The notes: a model not told the origin generated them from the sequence alone. Positions 1 through 42,995 are shown, counted from the first letter of the stretch. The stretch is DNA of 42,995 bases from a virus (IMGVR_UViG_3300037086_000089:1-42995), one strand, 5' to 3'. Translations and numbers: made by a program.

Positions 1-127
1 AGAACCGAGCGTACTTGACTCTGTTCTCGCAGACGATTTTCTGTGCGGCCGCTACTTGCTTCTCACTCGCCGATGAATGCTGGTAGACCGCCCGAAACCC
101 AATGCTCCAGAGTATCGGATGCACGCC
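1..127. repeat. Terminal direct repeat, left copy (circular overlap)
   Basis: These 127 bases are identical to bases 42869-42995. The repeat lies inside a coding sequence on the minus strand, and that gene becomes complete only when the ends are joined. A repeat length of exactly 127, a common largest k-mer in short-read assembly, points to a circular or circularly permuted molecule rather than to true packaged terminal repeats. A real direct terminal repeat cannot be excluded from sequence alone. Confidence 0.95.
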
Positions 128-2697: not shown

Positions 2698-2959
2698 CCT
2701 GTTTGGAAATGAGGCGCCGACCAAGGAGTACACTGGTCGACACCAGCACACCATCCTTGCAAAGAGGCTGGGGCCGCTGCACTACAGAAAGGCGCAGGAC
2801 AGGTCGGTGCGCTGCGCAACCTGCGCTCATCACTTCCTGAGATGCGGCCACCAGAGGATCTATCACAAGTGCGACCTGGTAGGTTGTAGTTTCAGCTCCG
2901 CAACGGATATCCGTGCGGGTCATGTCTGCAATGCGTGGAGAAAGGGGGAAGAGGAGTGA
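2690..2959 (+). CDS. Cys/His-rich small protein
   Basis: An 89-aa product with a probable zinc site: CATCAHH at about residues 42-48, then CGHQ, KCDLVGC and a late HVC. The N-terminus MTDLFGNE resembles the opening of several small phage early proteins, but I cannot assign a family. It overlaps the previous gene by 8 bases and the next by GTGA, so it is part of the same translation unit. A role with DNA or RNA is plausible from the metal site. Confidence 0.6.
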   Translation: MTDLFGNEAPTKEYTGRHQHTILAKRLGPLHYRKAQDRSVRCATCAHHFLRCGHQRIYHKCDLVGCSFSSATDIRAGHVCNAWRKGEEE

Positions 2960-3582
2960 AGGTATTCTGGTTCGATTGCGAAACATCAGGTCTGGATCCT
3001 TCCAGGCACGGCATCATCAGTCTGGCCTACGCCGTGGAGATCGACGGGCAGACGGTGGCCGAGGGCCAACTGTTTTCCAACTGCAAGGGCAAGGACGTGG
3101 AGGATAGCGCCCTGGCCGTCAACCACTTCACCCGCGAGCAGATCGAGCACTTCCCGCTTCCGCAGAAGATGTACCACGACCTTGCCGACCTGTTCGCACA
3201 GTACGTTGACAAGTTCGACAAGCAGGACAAGTTCTACGCCGGCGGGTACAACGTGGACTTCGATATGCGGTTCCTGCGCCAGCTCTGGACGGATTGCCAC
3301 GACAAGTATTTCGGAAGCTGGTTCTACTTCGGCGCCATCGACCCCGCGGCCCTCATGCCGGTGATGAGGTACATGGGGATGGAGTTGTCACCCGCTTCGT
3401 TCAAGCTCACCGATGTCGCGGCCTACCTAAGGCTGGACATAACGGGAGCCCACGATGCACAGGCCGACATTCTGTTAACCCGAAGGGTGACAGCAATGCC
3501 CATCAAGCGGATCAAGGAATCGTGGCGGCTGGAGTTGAATCCCGACACGTTGCATATAGTGACGCCCAATGGCAACACTTAA
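2956..3582 (+). CDS. DnaQ-like 3'-5' exonuclease (DEDDh)
   Basis: A 208-aa protein of the RNase T/DNA polymerase III epsilon superfamily. Exo I is FDCETSG (D7, E9), Exo II is in NVDFDMRFL (D103), and Exo III is GAHDAQAD (H166, D171), so the DEDDh set is complete. I chose the GTG at 2956 because it overlaps the upstream stop as GTGA and is preceded by GGGGGAAGAG; an ATG 21 bases upstream has no site. These enzymes remove 3' nucleotides from DNA or RNA using two metal ions. With no DNA polymerase gene in the genome, it may proofread or process ends for the host replisome, or trim nucleic acids during recombination. Confidence 0.85.
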   Translation: MKVFWFDCETSGLDPSRHGIISLAYAVEIDGQTVAEGQLFSNCKGKDVEDSALAVNHFTREQIEHFPLPQKMYHDLADLFAQYVDKFDKQDKFYAGGYNVDFDMRFLRQLWTDCHDKYFGSWFYFGAIDPAALMPVMRYMGMELSPASFKLTDVAAYLRLDITGAHDAQADILLTRRVTAMPIKRIKESWRLELNPDTLHIVTPNGNT

Positions 3583-3625: not shown

Positions 3626-4147
3626 ATGAGATGGCCTAACGTTTGGAATCAGACCGAAGCGAATCGTGAATGGGTTCCCCGTGTTGACGCCGAGGCCGAG
3701 ATCGAGAAGGCGCGCGCTAAGGGAGCCGCAGAAGGACTACGCGCTCAGTACAAGTATGCCATGGATGAGGCCCGCTCCGATGAACGGGAGCAGATAATTG
3801 GCATTCTTGGCTCGACAAAGGGGATGTATCACAAGCTTGAGGACAGACTCACTGACCGCATCCGTTCCCGTGGCACCCCGAGCAAGGAGTCCTGCGATTG
3901 CCCGTGCCACCTGGGGCCGTTTTCAAAGCACGGAGGAGACATTCCCGATCACCGCCCCGGCTCTCCGTGTCGATGCGAGGAACCCAAGCCGCTGGAGCAT
4001 ATCACCAACGGATGCCAGACGTGGCTCGACGCTCCGGCTATCTCAACGATCAACTCCCTCGTTAACAAGGTGAGCCGACTCGATGACGCGATGCGCCGGC
4101 ACTCTGCCGCCGTGGTGGACCTCCAGAACAGGATGAGCATCCGATGA
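3626..4147 (+). CDS. Hypothetical protein before small terminase
   Basis: A 173-aa protein. The ATG at 3626 has a strong ACAGGAGG site, better than an upstream in-frame ATG at 3569 that overlaps the exonuclease gene. The first half is a charged helix (VDAEAEIEKARAKGAAEGLRAQ...). The middle has a Cys/His group (CDCPCHLG...HGG...CRCEE) that could bind a metal. The C-terminus is helical with VNKVSRLDDAMRRH. It ends ATGA-overlapping the small terminase gene. Function unknown. Confidence 0.65.
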   Translation: MRWPNVWNQTEANREWVPRVDAEAEIEKARAKGAAEGLRAQYKYAMDEARSDEREQIIGILGSTKGMYHKLEDRLTDRIRSRGTPSKESCDCPCHLGPFSKHGGDIPDHRPGSPCRCEEPKPLEHITNGCQTWLDAPAISTINSLVNKVSRLDDAMRRHSAAVVDLQNRMSIR

Positions 4148-4866
4148 GCACCCCCTCCCAGCACAAGCGCGCGCCGCAGGCCAGCGTCATCGACACCCAC
4201 GAGCGGCGCCTCGCCATCCTCAAGGACATCGAGAACGACCGCGGAACCAGCGCTCAGATCGCCCGCCGCTACGGCATCAGCGTCCAGGCCATCCGACAGA
4301 AACGCGCCTACATAATCCGCGAGCTTGTCTCCAAGACCAGGAGCGACCGAGACCTGCGCACCGCCGAAGGCATCATGGCGAAGCTGGACACCCAGATCGA
4401 AATCTGCGACCAGATCCAGACCGCCATGAAAGCCTACCTCTCCGACCCCGATGACCCCACCAAAATCTGGATGGGCCTGCAGGCCGAGGAAGTGGTGGCC
4501 CACTACGACGAGGAGACGGGAGAGGAGCGCAAGGACGGAACACCCATCACCAAGCGCAAGAAGTCTATGCTCTCCGAGCTTGTGAAACGCTTCGAGAGCC
4601 AGGGCAAGAGCAGCTTCGAGTTCACGGTGAAACGTGACGACACCCGAAAGCTCTACATGGACTCCGTGAAGATGATCGGGGAAGTCCTCGACCGATTCGC
4701 CAAGATCCAGGGGCTCATCAAAGGCGTGCATGTCAGCATCAGCAGAACCGAGACGTGGAGCTTCGTCATGGCCGACATCATCAAGGCCACCGAGAAGTAC
4801 CCCGAGGCGCGAGAGGCCATCGTCGCCATGTTCGAGGAAAAAGCCAGGGAGTTGCCAACAGAATGA
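4144..4866 (+). CDS. terS: Putative terminase small subunit
   Basis: A 240-aa protein with an N-terminal helix-turn-helix at about residues 35-60 (GTSAQIARRYGISVQAIRQKRAYI), then long helices including a charged oligomerisation-like region and a C-terminal IIKATEKYPEAREAIVAMF helix. Small terminases recognise phage DNA through an HTH and form a ring that hands it to the large subunit. It lies just ahead of the large-terminase ATPase, separated only by a 48-aa gene, with ATGA overlaps throughout. Size and order match; the family call is by HTH and context. Confidence 0.65.
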   Translation: MSTPSQHKRAPQASVIDTHERRLAILKDIENDRGTSAQIARRYGISVQAIRQKRAYIIRELVSKTRSDRDLRTAEGIMAKLDTQIEICDQIQTAMKAYLSDPDDPTKIWMGLQAEEVVAHYDEETGEERKDGTPITKRKKSMLSELVKRFESQGKSSFEFTVKRDDTRKLYMDSVKMIGEVLDRFAKIQGLIKGVHVSISRTETWSFVMADIIKATEKYPEAREAIVAMFEEKARELPTE

Positions 4867-5009
4867 ACGTGGAACACGAGAATTGTTTCAACTCAATTCC
4901 TATTCGCCTAATGACTGCTATCCTGGAAGCTAACGATGAACCCAGAGATGATTGGCGCGACGATCAGTGGCGGGCAGACTATCATCAAGCTCTCAAGGAT
5001 TTGGAATGA
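4863..5009 (+). CDS. Small acidic protein between terminase genes
   Basis: A 48-aa frame that starts in the ATGA overlap with the small terminase and ends in an ATGA overlap with the large terminase. The second half is acidic with aromatic residues (EPRDDWRDDQWRADYHQALKDLE). No family is recognised. Coupling on both sides argues that it is translated and may act with the packaging enzyme. Confidence 0.6.
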   Translation: MNVEHENCFNSIPIRLMTAILEANDEPRDDWRDDQWRADYHQALKDLE

Positions 5010-5917
5010 AGGCTGACCGCCAAACGTATTGGGACGCCGTGTACGCTCTGGATCGCGTGAAGTACGCGGAGATGGTCGCCGGCTTCACCCTGTTCGCGTG
5101 GCAGCGCCGAGTCCTCGCATCCACAGCCAAGCGCAAGGTATTAAACTGCGCGCGCCAAGCAGGCAAGTCCAGCATCGTATCCGTCATCCCCGCGTGGACC
5201 GCCAAGTATAAGCCGCGGTCAGCCTGCTTCGTGCTGGCCGCCACCGAGCAGCAAGCCGTCTACGTCATCAACAAAATCAAGGCGTGCATGGCCCGCGATC
5301 CAACCTACACCGAGATCACGCGCGACAGCGACAGCCTGATCGTGCTGAAAAACGGATCCCGAATCGAGGTTCTGTGCGCCACCGAGAAGTCAAGCCGTGG
5401 ACCTTCCAAGCCCAACGTCATCATCCCCGATGAGGCTTCCCGAATCGAGGACGTAGTTATCACGTCGGGCATCATCCCCATGCTCAACGACAACCCTGAG
5501 TGCGAGCTTATCGTGCCCTCGACTCCGAACGGGCGCACGGGCTTTTTCTACCGCATCTTTCACAACAAAAAATGGGAGCGGTACTTCGTGCGCTCCGCGT
5601 TCTACCCATCCTCTGGAACGACTCTCGAGCGCATGGGGCCGGAGGAGCAGTTCATCGAGGAGCAGCGCAAGATCGGCGTCACCGCCTGCTACTCCCCGCG
5701 GCACATGGATGAAACGGAGCAGCTCGAACAGCTTATGATGATGGGCACCCAGCTCTACCGCCAGGAGGATTGCGGAGAGTTTGTGGAGCCAGAAACCCAG
5801 CTTTTCAGCTACAGCGATATCGCCAAGGCGTTCAACAAGGACGGGGTATCACCTTTGAAGTCAGGTGTGCTCGTGCGCGAGGACATCCATGCATTCACGG
5901 AGGAGGAAGAGGCATGA
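5006..5917 (+). CDS. terL: Terminase large subunit, ATPase half (split gene)
   Basis: A 303-aa protein containing only the packaging ATPase domain. Walker A is ARQAGKSS at residues 49-56, Walker B is NVIIPDEAS with D142 and E143, and the coupling motif STPNG is at 172-176. It ends after a typical linker (EFVEPETQLFSYSDIAKAF...), exactly where a full TerL would enter its RNase H-like nuclease domain. That domain is a separate gene at 7028-7807. Normal TerL proteins run about 430-600 aa in one chain. The start at 5006 overlaps the upstream stop as ATGA. The enzyme powers DNA translocation through the portal; here it must meet the nuclease as a separate subunit. Confidence 0.85.
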   Translation: MKADRQTYWDAVYALDRVKYAEMVAGFTLFAWQRRVLASTAKRKVLNCARQAGKSSIVSVIPAWTAKYKPRSACFVLAATEQQAVYVINKIKACMARDPTYTEITRDSDSLIVLKNGSRIEVLCATEKSSRGPSKPNVIIPDEASRIEDVVITSGIIPMLNDNPECELIVPSTPNGRTGFFYRIFHNKKWERYFVRSAFYPSSGTTLERMGPEEQFIEEQRKIGVTACYSPRHMDETEQLEQLMMMGTQLYRQEDCGEFVEPETQLFSYSDIAKAFNKDGVSPLKSGVLVREDIHAFTEEEEA

Positions 5918-6063
5918 ACACCATCCCATCAGTTTCCGAGGCATTGTGCATTGCCGAAACGTTTGAGGAGTCCTTGAAGCACGGCGTCTCACTTGACTTT
6001 AGAAATCTTGCCCTTATCTCTCTGGCGCGCCAGGTGAGGAAGGATAACGCGGAGAAGGCTTGA
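5914..6063 (+). CDS. Small hypothetical protein inside split terminase
   Basis: A 49-aa frame starting in the ATGA overlap with the ATPase stop, behind a GGAGGAGGAAGAGG site. The product (MNTIPSVSEALCIAETFEE...LISLARQVRKDNAEKA) looks like two or three helices and matches nothing I recognise. It is the first of three small genes that separate the two terminase halves. The 67 bases after it hold only the ribosome site for the next gene. Confidence 0.6.
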   Translation: MNTIPSVSEALCIAETFEESLKHGVSLDFRNLALISLARQVRKDNAEKA

Positions 6064-6130
6064 CGTTGCGCCGCTTTTGCCATCACTATCTCCTTGACAG
6101 TCATTCTTTGACCCGTAGGAGGGTACGATC

Positions 6131-6394
6131 ATGGCGAAAGATTCAAGCTCGATAGCAGGACAGACCCCGGCCCGCGAGGGAGAGGCGATCACCCGCCAGT
6201 GGGGCGAGAGCGTAGGCGGGACTCCCGCGCAGGGCGTTCCCCCCGAGGCTGCCCTCCCTGGACGGAGAAATGCCACGCGCATCGACAGCAACTTCGGCGG
6301 ACAGCCCCCGGCAGGCGGCGAGGGCAATGGTGCCCATGATCGCCCCGTTCCCAACGGGAGAGAGAACCACGGCGTAGTTCCCGGCGAGGAATAG
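6131..6394 (+). CDS. Low-complexity Gly/Pro-rich protein, paralogue A
   Basis: An 87-aa protein with a GTAGGAGGG ribosome site before ATG 6131. It is rich in Gly, Pro, Arg and Glu and probably disordered. Residues about 51-70 (ALPGRRNATRIDSNFGG) resemble DLPGARNATRVSGLNGG in the next gene, and the DNA shares AGAAATGCCACGCGC, so the two look like diverged duplicates. It lies in the same frame as both terminase halves. Bases 6395-6550 after it carry no gene; they include a C9/T7 homopolymer run near 6513-6528 and end in an AAAGGAGA ribosome site. Function unknown. Confidence 0.55.
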   Translation: MAKDSSSIAGQTPAREGEAITRQWGESVGGTPAQGVPPEAALPGRRNATRIDSNFGGQPPAGGEGNGAHDRPVPNGRENHGVVPGEE

Positions 6395-6550
6395 GTTTCA
6401 ACGGGGGCGGAAGTCCACGCGGCAGATCCTCCGAGGAATCCATAGCTTCCTTGTGCTGCCCGCCTAAAAAGCGGTCCTCGCCGTGACAGGTTGCCCATCA
6501 CAATCCGTCCACCCCCCCCCTTTTTTTCTCTCCAGAAAGGAGATTTCGCT

Positions 6551-7024
6551 ATGAAGTCAATCGACAAAGAACCGTCTTTCAACCAGGCTGACCTTCCCGG
6601 AGCAAGAAATGCCACGCGCGTGTCAGGCCTCAACGGGGGGCGCGTCTTCGGTGAAGGCGACGGCCGTGCCAATCACCCGCACAACCTCTCCTCCGCCGAT
6701 CGGCAGATCGGAAACCAGAGCAAGGAAGTGCAGGAGAACCCGACCGCCTTTCACGAGATCATCCAGCTTGGTTCACCGCGTGACCCGTGGACCCCCGGTG
6801 GACGAGAGCCCCTGAGCGTCTGGCCCGGTCCCGGCCGCTACCCCAGGGCGCAGGACGGAACCCCCGCCGAGCGCGGAGTCACCAGGGAGAGAGGAACAAT
6901 CATCTCGGGCTCCTTCCCCGTTAAAAGGAGCGACGACGCATGGGACCCCATGGACGGGAGTTTTGGATCGGAAACGAAAAAGGAGAGCACGGGACCGGGT
7001 TGCGGTACTCGCCAGCCAATATAA
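6551..7024 (+). CDS. Low-complexity protein, paralogue B, between terminase halves
   Basis: A 157-aa protein starting at ATG 6551 after AAAGGAGATTTCGCT. It is rich in Gly, Pro, Arg, Ser and Asn with little predicted order. Residues about 14-35 (DLPGARNATRVSGLNGGR) repeat the core of the preceding paralogue. Later segments include HEIIQLGSPRDPWTPGGREP and GTIISGSFPVKRSDDAWDP. It ends with TAA at 7022-7024, three bases before the GTG of the terminase nuclease and in the same frame. No family is recognised. It could be a virion or packaging accessory, or the remnant of whatever split the terminase. Confidence 0.6.
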   Translation: MKSIDKEPSFNQADLPGARNATRVSGLNGGRVFGEGDGRANHPHNLSSADRQIGNQSKEVQENPTAFHEIIQLGSPRDPWTPGGREPLSVWPGPGRYPRAQDGTPAERGVTRERGTIISGSFPVKRSDDAWDPMDGSFGSETKKESTGPGCGTRQPI

Positions 7025-7027
7025 ACC

Positions 7028-7807
7028 GTGAAGGAATACATCGTCACCGCCGACATTGCCTCCAAGCGAGACAGATACGCCGAGTGCGTGTGGCGGCGAC
7101 ATATCGGATTCGTCGAAGGCAACCAGGAAACAAAGTCCCCCACCCGCATTCTCTCTGAGCTTCAACTTGTCTGGATCAAGCAGGAAGAAAATCTCCGCTA
7201 CGAGGATATGCGAAAGTCCTTCATGCGCCTCGTCGGGCGCCAGGAGTTACACGACAACTGCGACCAGCTCGTGGACGGGACAGGCGTAGGGGATGCCGTG
7301 ATCGAGGATCTGCGCCACGACGGAGCCTTTCCCATCAGTGTGGTGTTCACCAACGGCGGACGAGCGCATCCCGTATACGCGGAGATCGGACAGATTTTCG
7401 GTGAGCAGCGGGCAGGTGAGCTTGCCACGATGCGCACAGTCAAGGAATGGCTCGTGCCGCGGCGCGACCTGGTTGCCGATGGCGCACTCATTCTTGAGCA
7501 GGGACGGCTTGCCGTCGCCAAGGAATTGAAGCACAGAGAGGCACTGGAGGCTCAGCTCACCGGCTTCACCCTCAATCGCAAAAAGATGAAGTATGAGGCG
7601 GAGAGCGAAGACCTGCACGATGACCTTGTGGTCAACTTTCTCATGGCCGCATGGTGGGTCCACTACTTCGAGACGGAAATACCCGAAGGGGAGTTTTTCC
7701 CACACGATGAAGTAGCCAAAGAGTGGGATCCTCTTGCGCAATTCAACATGACAGAGGAGCCATCCCAAGACATGCCTCATCAGGTGAGCGTTCAGTCATG
7801 GAGGTAG
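7028..7807 (+). CDS. terL: Terminase large subunit, nuclease half (split gene)
   Basis: A 259-aa protein matching the C-terminal RNase H-like nuclease of TerL. Acidic residues fall where expected: D9 in YIVTADIAS, D83 in LVDGTGVGD, and D198/D199 in LHDDLVVNFLMAAWW. The first strand starts at residue 4, so the GTG at 7028 must be the start, although it has no clear ribosome site. A TAA lies immediately upstream in frame. In other phages this domain cuts concatemers at the start and end of packaging and is fused to the ATPase, which here sits 1.1 kb upstream. The C-terminal tail (about 215-259) is acidic. The portal gene follows after 4 bases. Confidence 0.8.
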   Translation: MKEYIVTADIASKRDRYAECVWRRHIGFVEGNQETKSPTRILSELQLVWIKQEENLRYEDMRKSFMRLVGRQELHDNCDQLVDGTGVGDAVIEDLRHDGAFPISVVFTNGGRAHPVYAEIGQIFGEQRAGELATMRTVKEWLVPRRDLVADGALILEQGRLAVAKELKHREALEAQLTGFTLNRKKMKYEAESEDLHDDLVVNFLMAAWWVHYFETEIPEGEFFPHDEVAKEWDPLAQFNMTEEPSQDMPHQVSVQSWR

Positions 7808-7811
7808 GTCG

Positions 7812-9539
7812 ATGAGCAAGCCCCTTCCCATCGGGAATTACAGTATCTCCCAGCTCCAGCAAATCTATCAGCAACGCTGGAAAGTCCGCATGTTCAAAGA
7901 CATCGTGATGCGCGAGGTCAGCAATTTCATCAACATGGACATGGATAACTGGTTCCTCCGCAGTGACCCCCTCCTGAGCGGACGATCCCCGAACACGGGC
8001 GTGAGGTTGTACGACTGGACCGCCCCTCAGTCAAGCCTGCTCTGCGCCGAGGGCTTGATCGGATACGGATTCTCAGGGGTGTTTTTCCGACTCGAGTTTG
8101 ACGACGAGAAGATGAACGACGCGGCGGGAAAGTTTCTCCAGAACGCCGAACGCCAGATGTATAAGCAGCTTGCTATCAGTCCGTGGAAGGACGAGCTTCG
8201 CATATTCCTGCGTTCCTTTCTCGACTACGGTACGGCAATCCAATGGCGGCAGGAAAATGCCGCGATCGGGCGCCCGTCCTACAAGACCCTGCATTTGAAC
8301 CGCTGTTACATCGACAACAACGAGTGGGGAGACGTGGATGTTCTGATCAGGGACATCTGGATGAGCGCTCAGAGTGCAGTGGCTGAGTACGGATACGAAG
8401 AGTGCCCTCCGCAGATCCAGGACGCATACGACCACAATAAGGATCATCAGTGGCTCCTTCACTCCTTCTGCTTCCCGCAGGAGAAGTACGATCTTGACTT
8501 CGAGGTTCCCTCCGCGGAGTACGCGGAGATCACCTTACCGTCGTGCGACTGGTATCACCCAATTCGGATTGATCCGCACCAGACAAAGCCCTTCTTCGCC
8601 GCGCGCTACATGCGCTCGTACGACAGCGGACCCTGGGGCGTAGGGGCTCCCGGGACGCTGCAGCTTGGCAACGTGAAAATGCTCAACGCCATGAGCCAGG
8701 ACATGCTCAGGATCTCCCAGCGACTTGGCGACCCCACGATCATCGCCACACTTGGCGCGCGAGGGCGCATCAGCAGAGTCCCCGGTGACATCAACTACAT
8801 GACCCCCGGCAATTCTTACTCGCGCGAGAAGGTCGACGGGGATCCGAGGATGCTTGAGGAGCGGTATCAGTCCGTGCAAAAGATCGTTCGCTCCGCCTAC
8901 CACGAGGACTTCTTCAACGTACTGACACAGAATCTTGAGCAGATCACCAAGTCAACAGCTACCGGCGTCAACGCGCTCCAGGGAGAAAAGGCCGCCATGC
9001 TTGCCGCCTTCTCATCGCGCCTTGAGTACGAGTATTGTGAGCCGAATCTGAAAGACCTTTTCTTCATGGAGCTCCGGTCTGGGAGACTTGGCGAGGCACC
9101 CCGCACCGCCAAGGGAAGACCCTTGAAGCTCAACTTTGTCGGTCCCCTGTGGCAGATGCAGCGCCAGCAGTTGATACTCAACGCGACGATGGCAGCCCTG
9201 CAGCAGATCAACGCACTGGCCCAGATGCAGCTTGCCGCGGGACAGCCCGGGGATGTTCTGGACAACTTCGACCTCTCGGCATACGCTCGGGACATTGCCG
9301 TTTCATACGACGTTGCCAAGGACGTGTTGCGGAACATGATGGACGTGGCGAACATCAGGAAGGGAAGGGCGATGGCCGCGCAGCAGCAGGCGGAGACTCA
9401 GCAAAGAGAAACCGAAAGCCGCATGAATTTGGAAAGAGGAAGGGCCGCGGCGGCAAACGCGAAGGCATCAATCGGCCAGGTCGCATCGCAACCGGTCGCA
9501 CAGCCCCAGCCTTCGACGATGGGAAACGCGCTCGCGTAG
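7812..9539 (+). CDS. Portal / head-to-tail connector protein (podovirus type)
   Basis: A 575-aa protein of the type that forms the dodecameric portal of short-tailed phages. Diagnostic features are an early helical region, LYDWTAPQSSLLCAEGLIGYGFS near residues 65-90, the YDSGPWGVGAPGTLQLGNVKMLNAMSQDMLR stretch near 270-300 (the SxPYGxGPG...LN region of head-tail connecting proteins), and a long Gln/Ala-rich C-terminal helical tail. The size fits T7-like and Bordetella BPP-1-like connectors (500-700 aa). It docks the terminase and later the tail tubular protein A at 13.9 kb. Position right after the terminase nuclease fits. Confidence 0.85.
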   Translation: MSKPLPIGNYSISQLQQIYQQRWKVRMFKDIVMREVSNFINMDMDNWFLRSDPLLSGRSPNTGVRLYDWTAPQSSLLCAEGLIGYGFSGVFFRLEFDDEKMNDAAGKFLQNAERQMYKQLAISPWKDELRIFLRSFLDYGTAIQWRQENAAIGRPSYKTLHLNRCYIDNNEWGDVDVLIRDIWMSAQSAVAEYGYEECPPQIQDAYDHNKDHQWLLHSFCFPQEKYDLDFEVPSAEYAEITLPSCDWYHPIRIDPHQTKPFFAARYMRSYDSGPWGVGAPGTLQLGNVKMLNAMSQDMLRISQRLGDPTIIATLGARGRISRVPGDINYMTPGNSYSREKVDGDPRMLEERYQSVQKIVRSAYHEDFFNVLTQNLEQITKSTATGVNALQGEKAAMLAAFSSRLEYEYCEPNLKDLFFMELRSGRLGEAPRTAKGRPLKLNFVGPLWQMQRQQLILNATMAALQQINALAQMQLAAGQPGDVLDNFDLSAYARDIAVSYDVAKDVLRNMMDVANIRKGRAMAAQQQAETQQRETESRMNLERGRAAAANAKASIGQVASQPVAQPQPSTMGNALA

Positions 9540-9554
9540 CAGGAGGATGATGGG

Positions 9555-9785
9555 ATGACAATCGAGCAGGAGAACGAATCACTCAGGGCTCGCGTGACCG
9601 AGCTTGAGACGGCGTGCAGGAACATGAGGACGGGACTCGCCAACCTCCTGACTATCGTCAAGGAGTACGGCGGGGGATTCTTGAAAACCTACCAGTCCGT
9701 TATGAGCAAACGCGACGCGGAGGACGCTGGGGTGGAGCTGTCCAAGAAGTACGATTTCACCAAAGACCCGGACAAGGACAACTGA
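9555..9785 (+). CDS. Small coiled-coil protein
   Basis: A 76-aa protein behind a GCAGGAGGATGATGGG site. Residues 1-40 form a heptad-like helix (MTIEQENESLRARVTELETACRNMRTGLANLL), and the tail is charged (YDFTKDPDKDN). It is placed between the portal and the scaffold genes. It may be a head-assembly accessory, but no family is recognised. Confidence 0.65.
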   Translation: MTIEQENESLRARVTELETACRNMRTGLANLLTIVKEYGGGFLKTYQSVMSKRDAEDAGVELSKKYDFTKDPDKDN

Positions 9786-42860: not shown

Positions 42861-42995
42861 CTACTCGAAGAACCGAGCGTACTTGACTCTGTTCTCGCAG
42901 ACGATTTTCTGTGCGGCCGCTACTTGCTTCTCACTCGCCGATGAATGCTGGTAGACCGCCCGAAACCCAATGCTCCAGAGTATCGGATGCACGCC
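42861..42995 (-). CDS. Junction-spanning hypothetical protein, C-terminal part
   Basis: This is the 3' end of the gene that begins at 355. The frame is open from the right edge of the window to the TAG at 42863-42861. The last residues include ILWSIGFRAVYQHSS and end in KYARFFE. No function is recognised. The next leftward coding sequences begin within about 100 bases, so the leftward operon appears continuous through the junction. Confidence 0.75.
   Translation of the reverse strand, partial: GVHPILWSIGFRAVYQHSSASEKQVAAAQKIVCENRVKYARFFE
42869..42995. repeat. Terminal direct repeat, right copy (circular overlap)
   Basis: Second copy of the 127-base terminal identity with bases 1-127. Removing one copy gives a circle of about 42,868 bp. 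It sits within the 3' half of the minus-strand gene that spans the contig junction. Confidence 0.95.

What the first reader, a model, noticed from the sequence alone, without database searches (positions are those of the whole stretch)
5006..7807. Large terminase split into separate ATPase and nuclease genes
The ATPase gene has Walker A, Walker B and STPNG but stops after the linker. The RNase H-like nuclease with its acidic triad begins 1.1 kb later as its own gene, with a GTG start and no clear ribosome site. The usual enzyme is one chain. Both halves and two of the three intervening ORFs are in the same reading frame, separated by TGA, TAG and TAA, so this looks like in-frame insertion at the domain boundary rather than decay. 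All key residues are kept, so the two-subunit packaging motor should work.
Basis: partly seen in the sequence, partly recalled or inferred. Interest (0 to 1): 0.7.

Follow-up and report, generated by a model that had tools for sequence, protein, structure and literature searches.

The report
Phage packaging motor in two genes
In this phage, and in a large family of uncultured relatives, the enzyme that packs DNA into the virus head is made as two separate proteins (an ATPase and a DNA cutter) instead of the usual single chain, so the physical link thought essential in phage T4 is not needed everywhere.

Summary
The ATPase half (5006-5917) and the RNase H-like nuclease half (7028-7807) of the large terminase (TerL) are separate, complete genes between a TerS-like gene and a PF12236 portal gene, in a complete contig (127-bp exact terminal repeat). 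The split was not made by in-frame insertion here. An IMG/VR scan with the ATPase alone gave 80 loci: 69 have a separate downstream nuclease gene, 2 more show it at relaxed threshold, 1 is a single chain, 8 are ATPase-only without a confirmed nuclease. In most relatives the two genes touch (4-nt overlaps, gaps of 0-64 nt) in any relative frame, so they are translated independently. The 1.1 kb between the halves is a later insertion into a pre-existing junction; sister phages share its first small gene and carry HNH-type endonuclease genes there, as do other lineages. Splicing, misassembly and decay are disfavoured. Catalytic residues are kept in both halves. Most likely a two-subunit packaging motor; action of the nuclease in trans is inferred, not shown. 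I found no description of this family. Separated T4 domains lose translocation, so this makes the covalent-linkage question testable.

The parts
4144..4866 (+). Probable small terminase subunit (TerS-like, N-terminal HTH), first gene of the packaging cluster
   Evidence: Weak HTH matches only, below Pfam cut-off; homologues 22-58% identical stand directly upstream of the ATPase gene in many relatives. Assignment by position plus HTH: inferred.
5006..5917 (+). Stand-alone TerL ATPase subunit (303 aa) with Walker A, Walker B and STPNG coupling motif; ends after the ATPase domain with a low-confidence acidic tail
   Evidence: AF2 pLDDT 89.6, Foldseek T4 gp17 ATPase 2o0j 2.3e-12; 26-member alignment
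5914..6063 (+). ORF A49 (49 aa), overlaps the ATPase stop by ATGA; conserved in the sister phages at the same place
   Evidence: 76% identity to L013/L014, 50% to L012; function unknown
6131..6394 (+). ORF B87 (87 aa), good Shine-Dalgarno TAGGAGG; Gly/Pro-rich, probably disordered
   Evidence: Sequence; shares a LPGxRNATR motif with ORF C157 and with a 78-aa ORF in L012/L014; no family hit
6551..7024 (+). ORF C157 (157 aa), Shine-Dalgarno AAAGGAG; low-complexity paralogue of B87; its stop lies 3 nt before the nuclease start
   Evidence: 35-nt direct repeat, 83%; E 2e-9 to L014:4142-4378
7028..7807 (+). Stand-alone TerL nuclease subunit (259 aa), RNase H/RuvC-like, Terminase_6C type, phrog_27743; invariant D9, D83, H197, D198, D199
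7812..9539 (+). Portal protein (PF12236 head-tail connector), next gene after the nuclease
   Evidence: Pfam 6.4e-56, phrog_332 3.5e-58

Best explanation
The phage encodes its large terminase as two polypeptides, a packaging ATPase and a separate RNase H-like endonuclease. The fission at the ATPase/nuclease hinge is an old trait of a large lineage, not an event of this genome [shown: conserved arrangement and tree]. In most relatives the genes abut or overlap by 4 nt, so they are translated as two proteins, probably coupled [start codons and overlaps shown; coupling inferred]. In the window's sub-clade, small ORFs (and, in sisters, homing-type endonuclease genes) later inserted at the junction [shown by comparison]. 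The ATPase most likely forms the ring on the portal, and the nuclease joins in trans to cut the concatemer at the start and end of packaging. The low-confidence ATPase tail, TerS or the portal could provide the docking site [inferred, untested].
For: Both domains identified by profile and fold. Split in every core-family relative with both halves readable. In a scan using the ATPase only, hence blind to fusion, 69 of 80 loci have a separate nuclease gene, 2 more at relaxed threshold, 1 is a single chain; 8 have an ATPase-only ORF (about 278-280 aa) without a confirmed nuclease in the stretch held. Tree: 55 split and 3 single-chain sequences in one superclade (94/92); the 42-sequence core, window included, is all split (100/99). 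Catalytic residues invariant in 27 nucleases and Walker A/B residues in 26 ATPases. ATPase and nuclease distances track each other across 70 loci (Mantel r 0.87, 0 of 2000 permutations). Abutting genes in varying frames: 4-nt overlap in L018, L020, L023, L025, L026, L028, L030, L033, L037, L055; TAATG in L007. Inserts at the junction: HNH in L014 (1.3e-50), L060 (3.8e-60), L139, L130, L035, L186, endonuclease VII-like in L012.
Against: No interaction or packaging data. In T4 the separated domains keep their own activities but lose translocation (PMC9958956), so a two-piece motor must couple differently. The shared gene neighbourhood alone would give correlated distances. The nuclease could have another role. 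Single-chain TerLs nested in the superclade (MMP17, Riverbug, L193) show the linked form also occurs there; whether there was one fission with later refusions or several fissions is unresolved (AU test does not reject a single split clade, p 0.206).
Confidence: 0.8

Rival explanations
1. The two halves are exons joined by a self-splicing intron (or by trans-splicing), so the mature protein is the usual single chain, as in Jug phages whose terL is broken by group I introns.
For: Precedent with read-proved splicing in Jug phages (PMC12363816); homing-type endonuclease genes at this junction in sisters.
Against: No intron family at E<1 in 4100-9600. Relatives have only a 4-nt overlap or 0-64 nt between the genes, in changing frames, which leaves no room for an intron. 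Each half starts and stops where relatives' genes do.
Confidence: 0.03
2. An in-frame insertion at the domain boundary of a formerly intact terL in this phage made the split.
For: Four of the five ORFs share a frame.
Against: Relatives are split without the insert, and the core clade of 42 sequences is entirely split. Sisters L012 and L014 have inserts of other content and the nuclease in another frame.
Confidence: 0.03
3. The ATPase packages alone and the neighbouring nuclease is not a motor subunit, for instance a Holliday-junction or other processing enzyme that merely descends from TerL; cutting is done by another nuclease such as the inserted HNH enzymes.
For: The nuclease fold is RuvC-like. 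HNH genes recur at the junction. Eight scan loci lack a confirmed nuclease next to the ATPase.
Against: The nuclease is nearest to TerL nucleases, not resolvases; it is kept next to ATPase and portal throughout the core family; its distances track the ATPase. HNH genes are absent from the window and from most relatives.
Confidence: 0.12
4. Assembly error, or a decayed terminase in a defective genome.
For: Metagenomic contig; B87 and C157 are low complexity.
Against: Same architecture in independent contigs from many samples. Motifs intact. Complete contig with structural, recombination and tail genes.
Confidence: 0.01

Closest known systems
T4 gp17-type large terminase (Terminase_6N/6C; PDB 3cpe, 2o0h)
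   Same: Both domains homologous, same order, same motifs, beside TerS (Terminase_6C)
   Different: One chain with an essential hinge in T4; two genes here
Thermus phage G20c/P74-26 TerL (PDB 5m1f, 4znk)
   Same: Best structural match of the nuclease (5m1o, Foldseek 7.6e-6) and among the best of the ATPase
   Different: 485-aa single chain
TerL of Meiothermus phage MMP17 and Thermus phage Riverbug
   Same: Closest single-chain relatives: 45-47% to the ATPase of split locus L043; C-terminus matches the split-nuclease profile
   Different: Fused, 415-417 aa; nested among split forms in the tree
Jug phage terL split by group I introns
   Same: terL in 2-3 pieces with endonuclease genes nearby (PMC12363816)
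   Different: Reads show RNA splicing restores one chain; here no intron and complete separate genes
Mic1 TerL with two inteins
   Same: Interrupted TerL coding sequence (PMC7156551)
   Different: Protein splicing restores one chain; no intein expected where two complete genes overlap by 4 nt
HCMV terminase pUL56/pUL89
   Same: Terminase whose ATPase and nuclease roles are assigned to different proteins (PMC6897398 abstract)
   Different: The title of that paper gives pUL89 itself a two-domain structure; homology of pUL56 was not tested here
Stand-alone 'terminase, ATPase domain' and 'terminase, nuclease domain' labels in actinophage annotation
   Same: From memory only: such labels exist in phage annotation practice, so split TerLs are probably not unique to this clade
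   Different: Not verified with these tools; no more than weak sequence hits to this nuclease among 50,697 phage records

Membership tests
Large terminase (TerL) superfamily, Terminase_6/T4 gp17 type | ASCE ATPase with Walker A, Walker B-Glu and coupling motif | tested here: met
Large terminase (TerL) superfamily, Terminase_6/T4 gp17 type | RNase H-like nuclease of the terminase type with conserved acidic residues | tested here: met
   Family level: Terminase_6C, G20c nuclease, invariant D9/D83/D198-D199
Large terminase (TerL) superfamily, Terminase_6/T4 gp17 type | Both domains in one polypeptide | tested here: not met
   Separate genes here and in most relatives; so each product is a TerL-domain homologue, not a canonical TerL
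Large terminase (TerL) superfamily, Terminase_6/T4 gp17 type | Gene next to TerS and portal | tested here: met
   Portal PF12236 at 7812-9539; TerS-like gene upstream (weak)
Large terminase (TerL) superfamily, Terminase_6/T4 gp17 type | Ring on the portal, ATP-driven translocation and DNA cutting | not testable with these tools
   Needs biochemistry
Intron-interrupted terL (Jug type) | Group I or II intron between the coding pieces | tested here: not met
   No Rfam hit at E<1; abutting genes in relatives
Split-TerL phage clade (described here) | ATPase-only ORF followed by nuclease-only ORF, ATPase within the 42-sequence core clade | tested here: met
   Window sits in the core (100/99); nuclease matches phrog_27743 as do all 27 members tested
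Gene split by a homing endonuclease | Endonuclease gene within the inserted stretch | tested here: not met
   Window ORFs A49, B87, C157 have no relevant hit; sisters L012, L014 and L035, L060, L130, L139 do carry one

The most novel reading that the evidence does not exclude
A large lineage of tailed phages packages DNA with an ATPase ring that has no covalently attached nuclease. Translocation is done by the ATPase alone, and the nuclease is a dissociable subunit that joins only to cut, contrary to models in which the tethered C-terminal domain is the DNA-moving part.
Probability: 0.45. Interest if true: 0.8.

Novelty: new variant of a known kind. Interest (0 to 1): 0.62.

Why it matters
A review states that the RNase H-fold nuclease domain associated with the large terminase is a universal feature of tailed phages (PMC7824862), and another that in T4 the hinge linking the domains is essential: separated domains keep ATPase and nuclease activity but lose translocation (PMC9958956). 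A conserved natural two-gene TerL suggests that evolution solved packaging without that link, and gives a ready-made system to ask which domain moves DNA and how cutting is switched on and off. It also gives a function to an unannotated protein family (phrog_27743) and warns that TerL trees and phage callers built on full-length TerL may mishandle this lineage.

Tried and rejected
Intron: Rfam scan found nothing relevant. Misassembly: rejected by independent contigs. Second TerL: none. In-frame insertion as cause: rejected. Isolated phage with this nuclease: none found. Early searches with one to three sequences found only a few loci; the four-sequence alignment opened the family. L187 first looked like a long fused ATPase, but it is only a long open frame. 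L193 was first taken as a refusion; its nuclease part is not hit by the split-nuclease profile, so it may be an ATPase joined to another nuclease. Tree caution: long branches among the single-chain outgroups, root at midpoint, number of fissions and refusions uncertain. C-terminal ATPase tails were inspected for a shared docking motif; no single motif is evident. The literature search for split TerL found only the intron and intein cases; many subscription papers are not held.

Full report
What is there. The window is a virus record of 42,995 bp whose first and last 127 bases are identical, the usual sign of a complete circular assembly. Structural genes fit a short-tailed phage: PF12236 portal, GP7-type major capsid protein, tail proteins, plus a RecE-like exonuclease. 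The gene order is TerS-like (4144-4866), ATPase (5006-5917), ORFs A49, B87 and C157 (5914-7024), nuclease (7028-7807), portal (7812-9539).

Both halves are terminase domains. The ATPase matches Pfam TerL_ATPase and phrog_7579, a 239-column ATPase-sized profile. As a 26-member profile it finds T4 gp17 at 6.8e-17. Its AlphaFold model (pLDDT 89.6) matches the T4 and P74-26 ATPase domains. The nuclease alone has no Pfam match, but 11 of 27 family members match Terminase_6C (best 6.7e-8). The profile finds the G20c TerL nuclease (1.5e-5), and the model (pLDDT 79.5) matches the same nuclease best (7.6e-6). All 27 members match phrog_27743, a family of unknown function. Residues D9, D15, D83, H197, D198 and D199 are invariant; in the ATPase, G53-K54-S55, D142-E143, S172, P174 and G176 are invariant.

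The split is old and common. The first single-sequence and two-sequence searches found L004, L005 and L007; L004 and L007, which hold both genes, have them separate. A four-sequence nuclease alignment found 36 IMG/VR loci and six bacterial contigs, five of them labelled Spirochaetota/Treponema and one Acetobacteraceae. All loci with both halves readable were split. To avoid bias I then searched with the ATPase alone: 265 stretches matched and the best 80 were kept. Of these, 69 have a separate downstream nuclease ORF. Two more (L147, L177) show it at a relaxed threshold. L193 is a single chain with a different nuclease. L188-L192 have an ATPase-only ORF and a nuclease-like start about 2.8 kb further on (E 0.34, weak), and L183, L184 and L186 have an ATPase-only ORF with no nuclease seen in the stretch held. 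These loci include near-copies; after thinning at 85% identity the tree has 55 split rows and 12 single-chain rows.

Tree. The ATPase tree places all split sequences with three single-chain ones (MMP17, Riverbug, L193) in one superclade (94/92); the core of 42, with the window, is all split (100/99). Starred branches force three changes of state. One fission with later rejoining, or more than one fission, both fit; on a smaller set a single split clade is not rejected (p 0.206). Long outgroup branches and a midpoint root limit this.

How the genes are expressed. In relatives the nuclease start overlaps the ATPase stop by 4 nt in ten loci tabulated, by TAATG in L007, or follows within 0-64 nt, in all three relative frames. 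No recoding or splicing scheme fits all of these; separate initiation with translational coupling does (inferred). In the window the nuclease GTG lies 3 nt after the stop of C157, and in L014 its TTG overlaps the stop of the HNH gene, so coupling to the upstream ORF may have moved with the insert.

The insert. A49 is conserved at 76% in L013/L014 and 50% in L012, overlapping the ATPase stop in the same way. B87 and C157 are related low-complexity ORFs, and share motifs with a 78-aa ORF between the halves in L012/L014. In L014 an HNH endonuclease gene, and in L012 an endonuclease VII-like gene, lies directly before the nuclease. HNH genes lie at the same junction in L035, L060, L130 and L139, and after the ATPase in L186. 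The junction is therefore a repeated landing site of homing-type endonuclease genes. Whether such a gene caused the original fission is unknown.

Mechanism. I favour a two-subunit terminase: ATPase ring on the portal, nuclease acting in trans. The two proteins' distances correlate strongly across 70 loci (r 0.87), as expected for partners but also for neighbours. The ATPase C-terminal tail (about residues 270-303) has low model confidence and no shared motif was evident; it is a candidate docking site only by position. In T4 the hinge is reported essential and separated domains lose translocation (PMC9958956), so this lineage must couple, or not need to couple, in another way.

Novelty. The pieces are known domains; the stable two-gene arrangement over a broad lineage I did not find described in the papers searched. 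Known interrupted terL genes are repaired by RNA or protein splicing (PMC12363816, PMC7156551). From memory, some actinophage annotations use separate ATPase-domain and nuclease-domain labels, so other split terminases may exist; this was not verified.

Noticed in passing
window 1-127 and 42869-42995: Exact 127-bp direct terminal repeat, typical of a circularised assembly; two loci from opposite ends of the sister contig 3300037087_000143 also share a 127-nt identical run.
   Followed up: partly
window 6246-6280 and 6585-6619: 35-nt direct repeat (83%) shared by ORFs B87 and C157, with a similar LPG-RNA-R protein motif in L014:4142-4378 and L012:5076-5312: a small low-complexity protein family of unknown function.
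   Followed up: partly
L159 (contig 3300031998_000198:1-4486) and L161 (same contig, 39535-45219): One 45-kb contig carries two different split-TerL ATPase/nuclease pairs, one near each end.
   Followed up: no
L190:4039-6075: Between the ATPase gene and a distant nuclease-like start lies a 678-aa ORF with a phosphoesterase-like part followed by an intein-like start.
   Followed up: no
L019:730-2035: The ATPase open frame is only 228 aa; the N-terminal third is not in frame, so a frameshift or an interruption is likely.
   Followed up: no
L057-L061: Bacterial contigs holding the split TerL are labelled Spirochaetota/Treponema MAGs; 5 of 200 genomes of one family show a strong nuclease match, suggesting spirochaete hosts for part of the clade, unless phage contigs were mis-binned.
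   Followed up: partly
window 2935-3582: RNase_T-type exonuclease (PF00929, 8.5e-8) upstream of the packaging genes.
   Followed up: no
[quoted passage not shown]
   Followed up: partly
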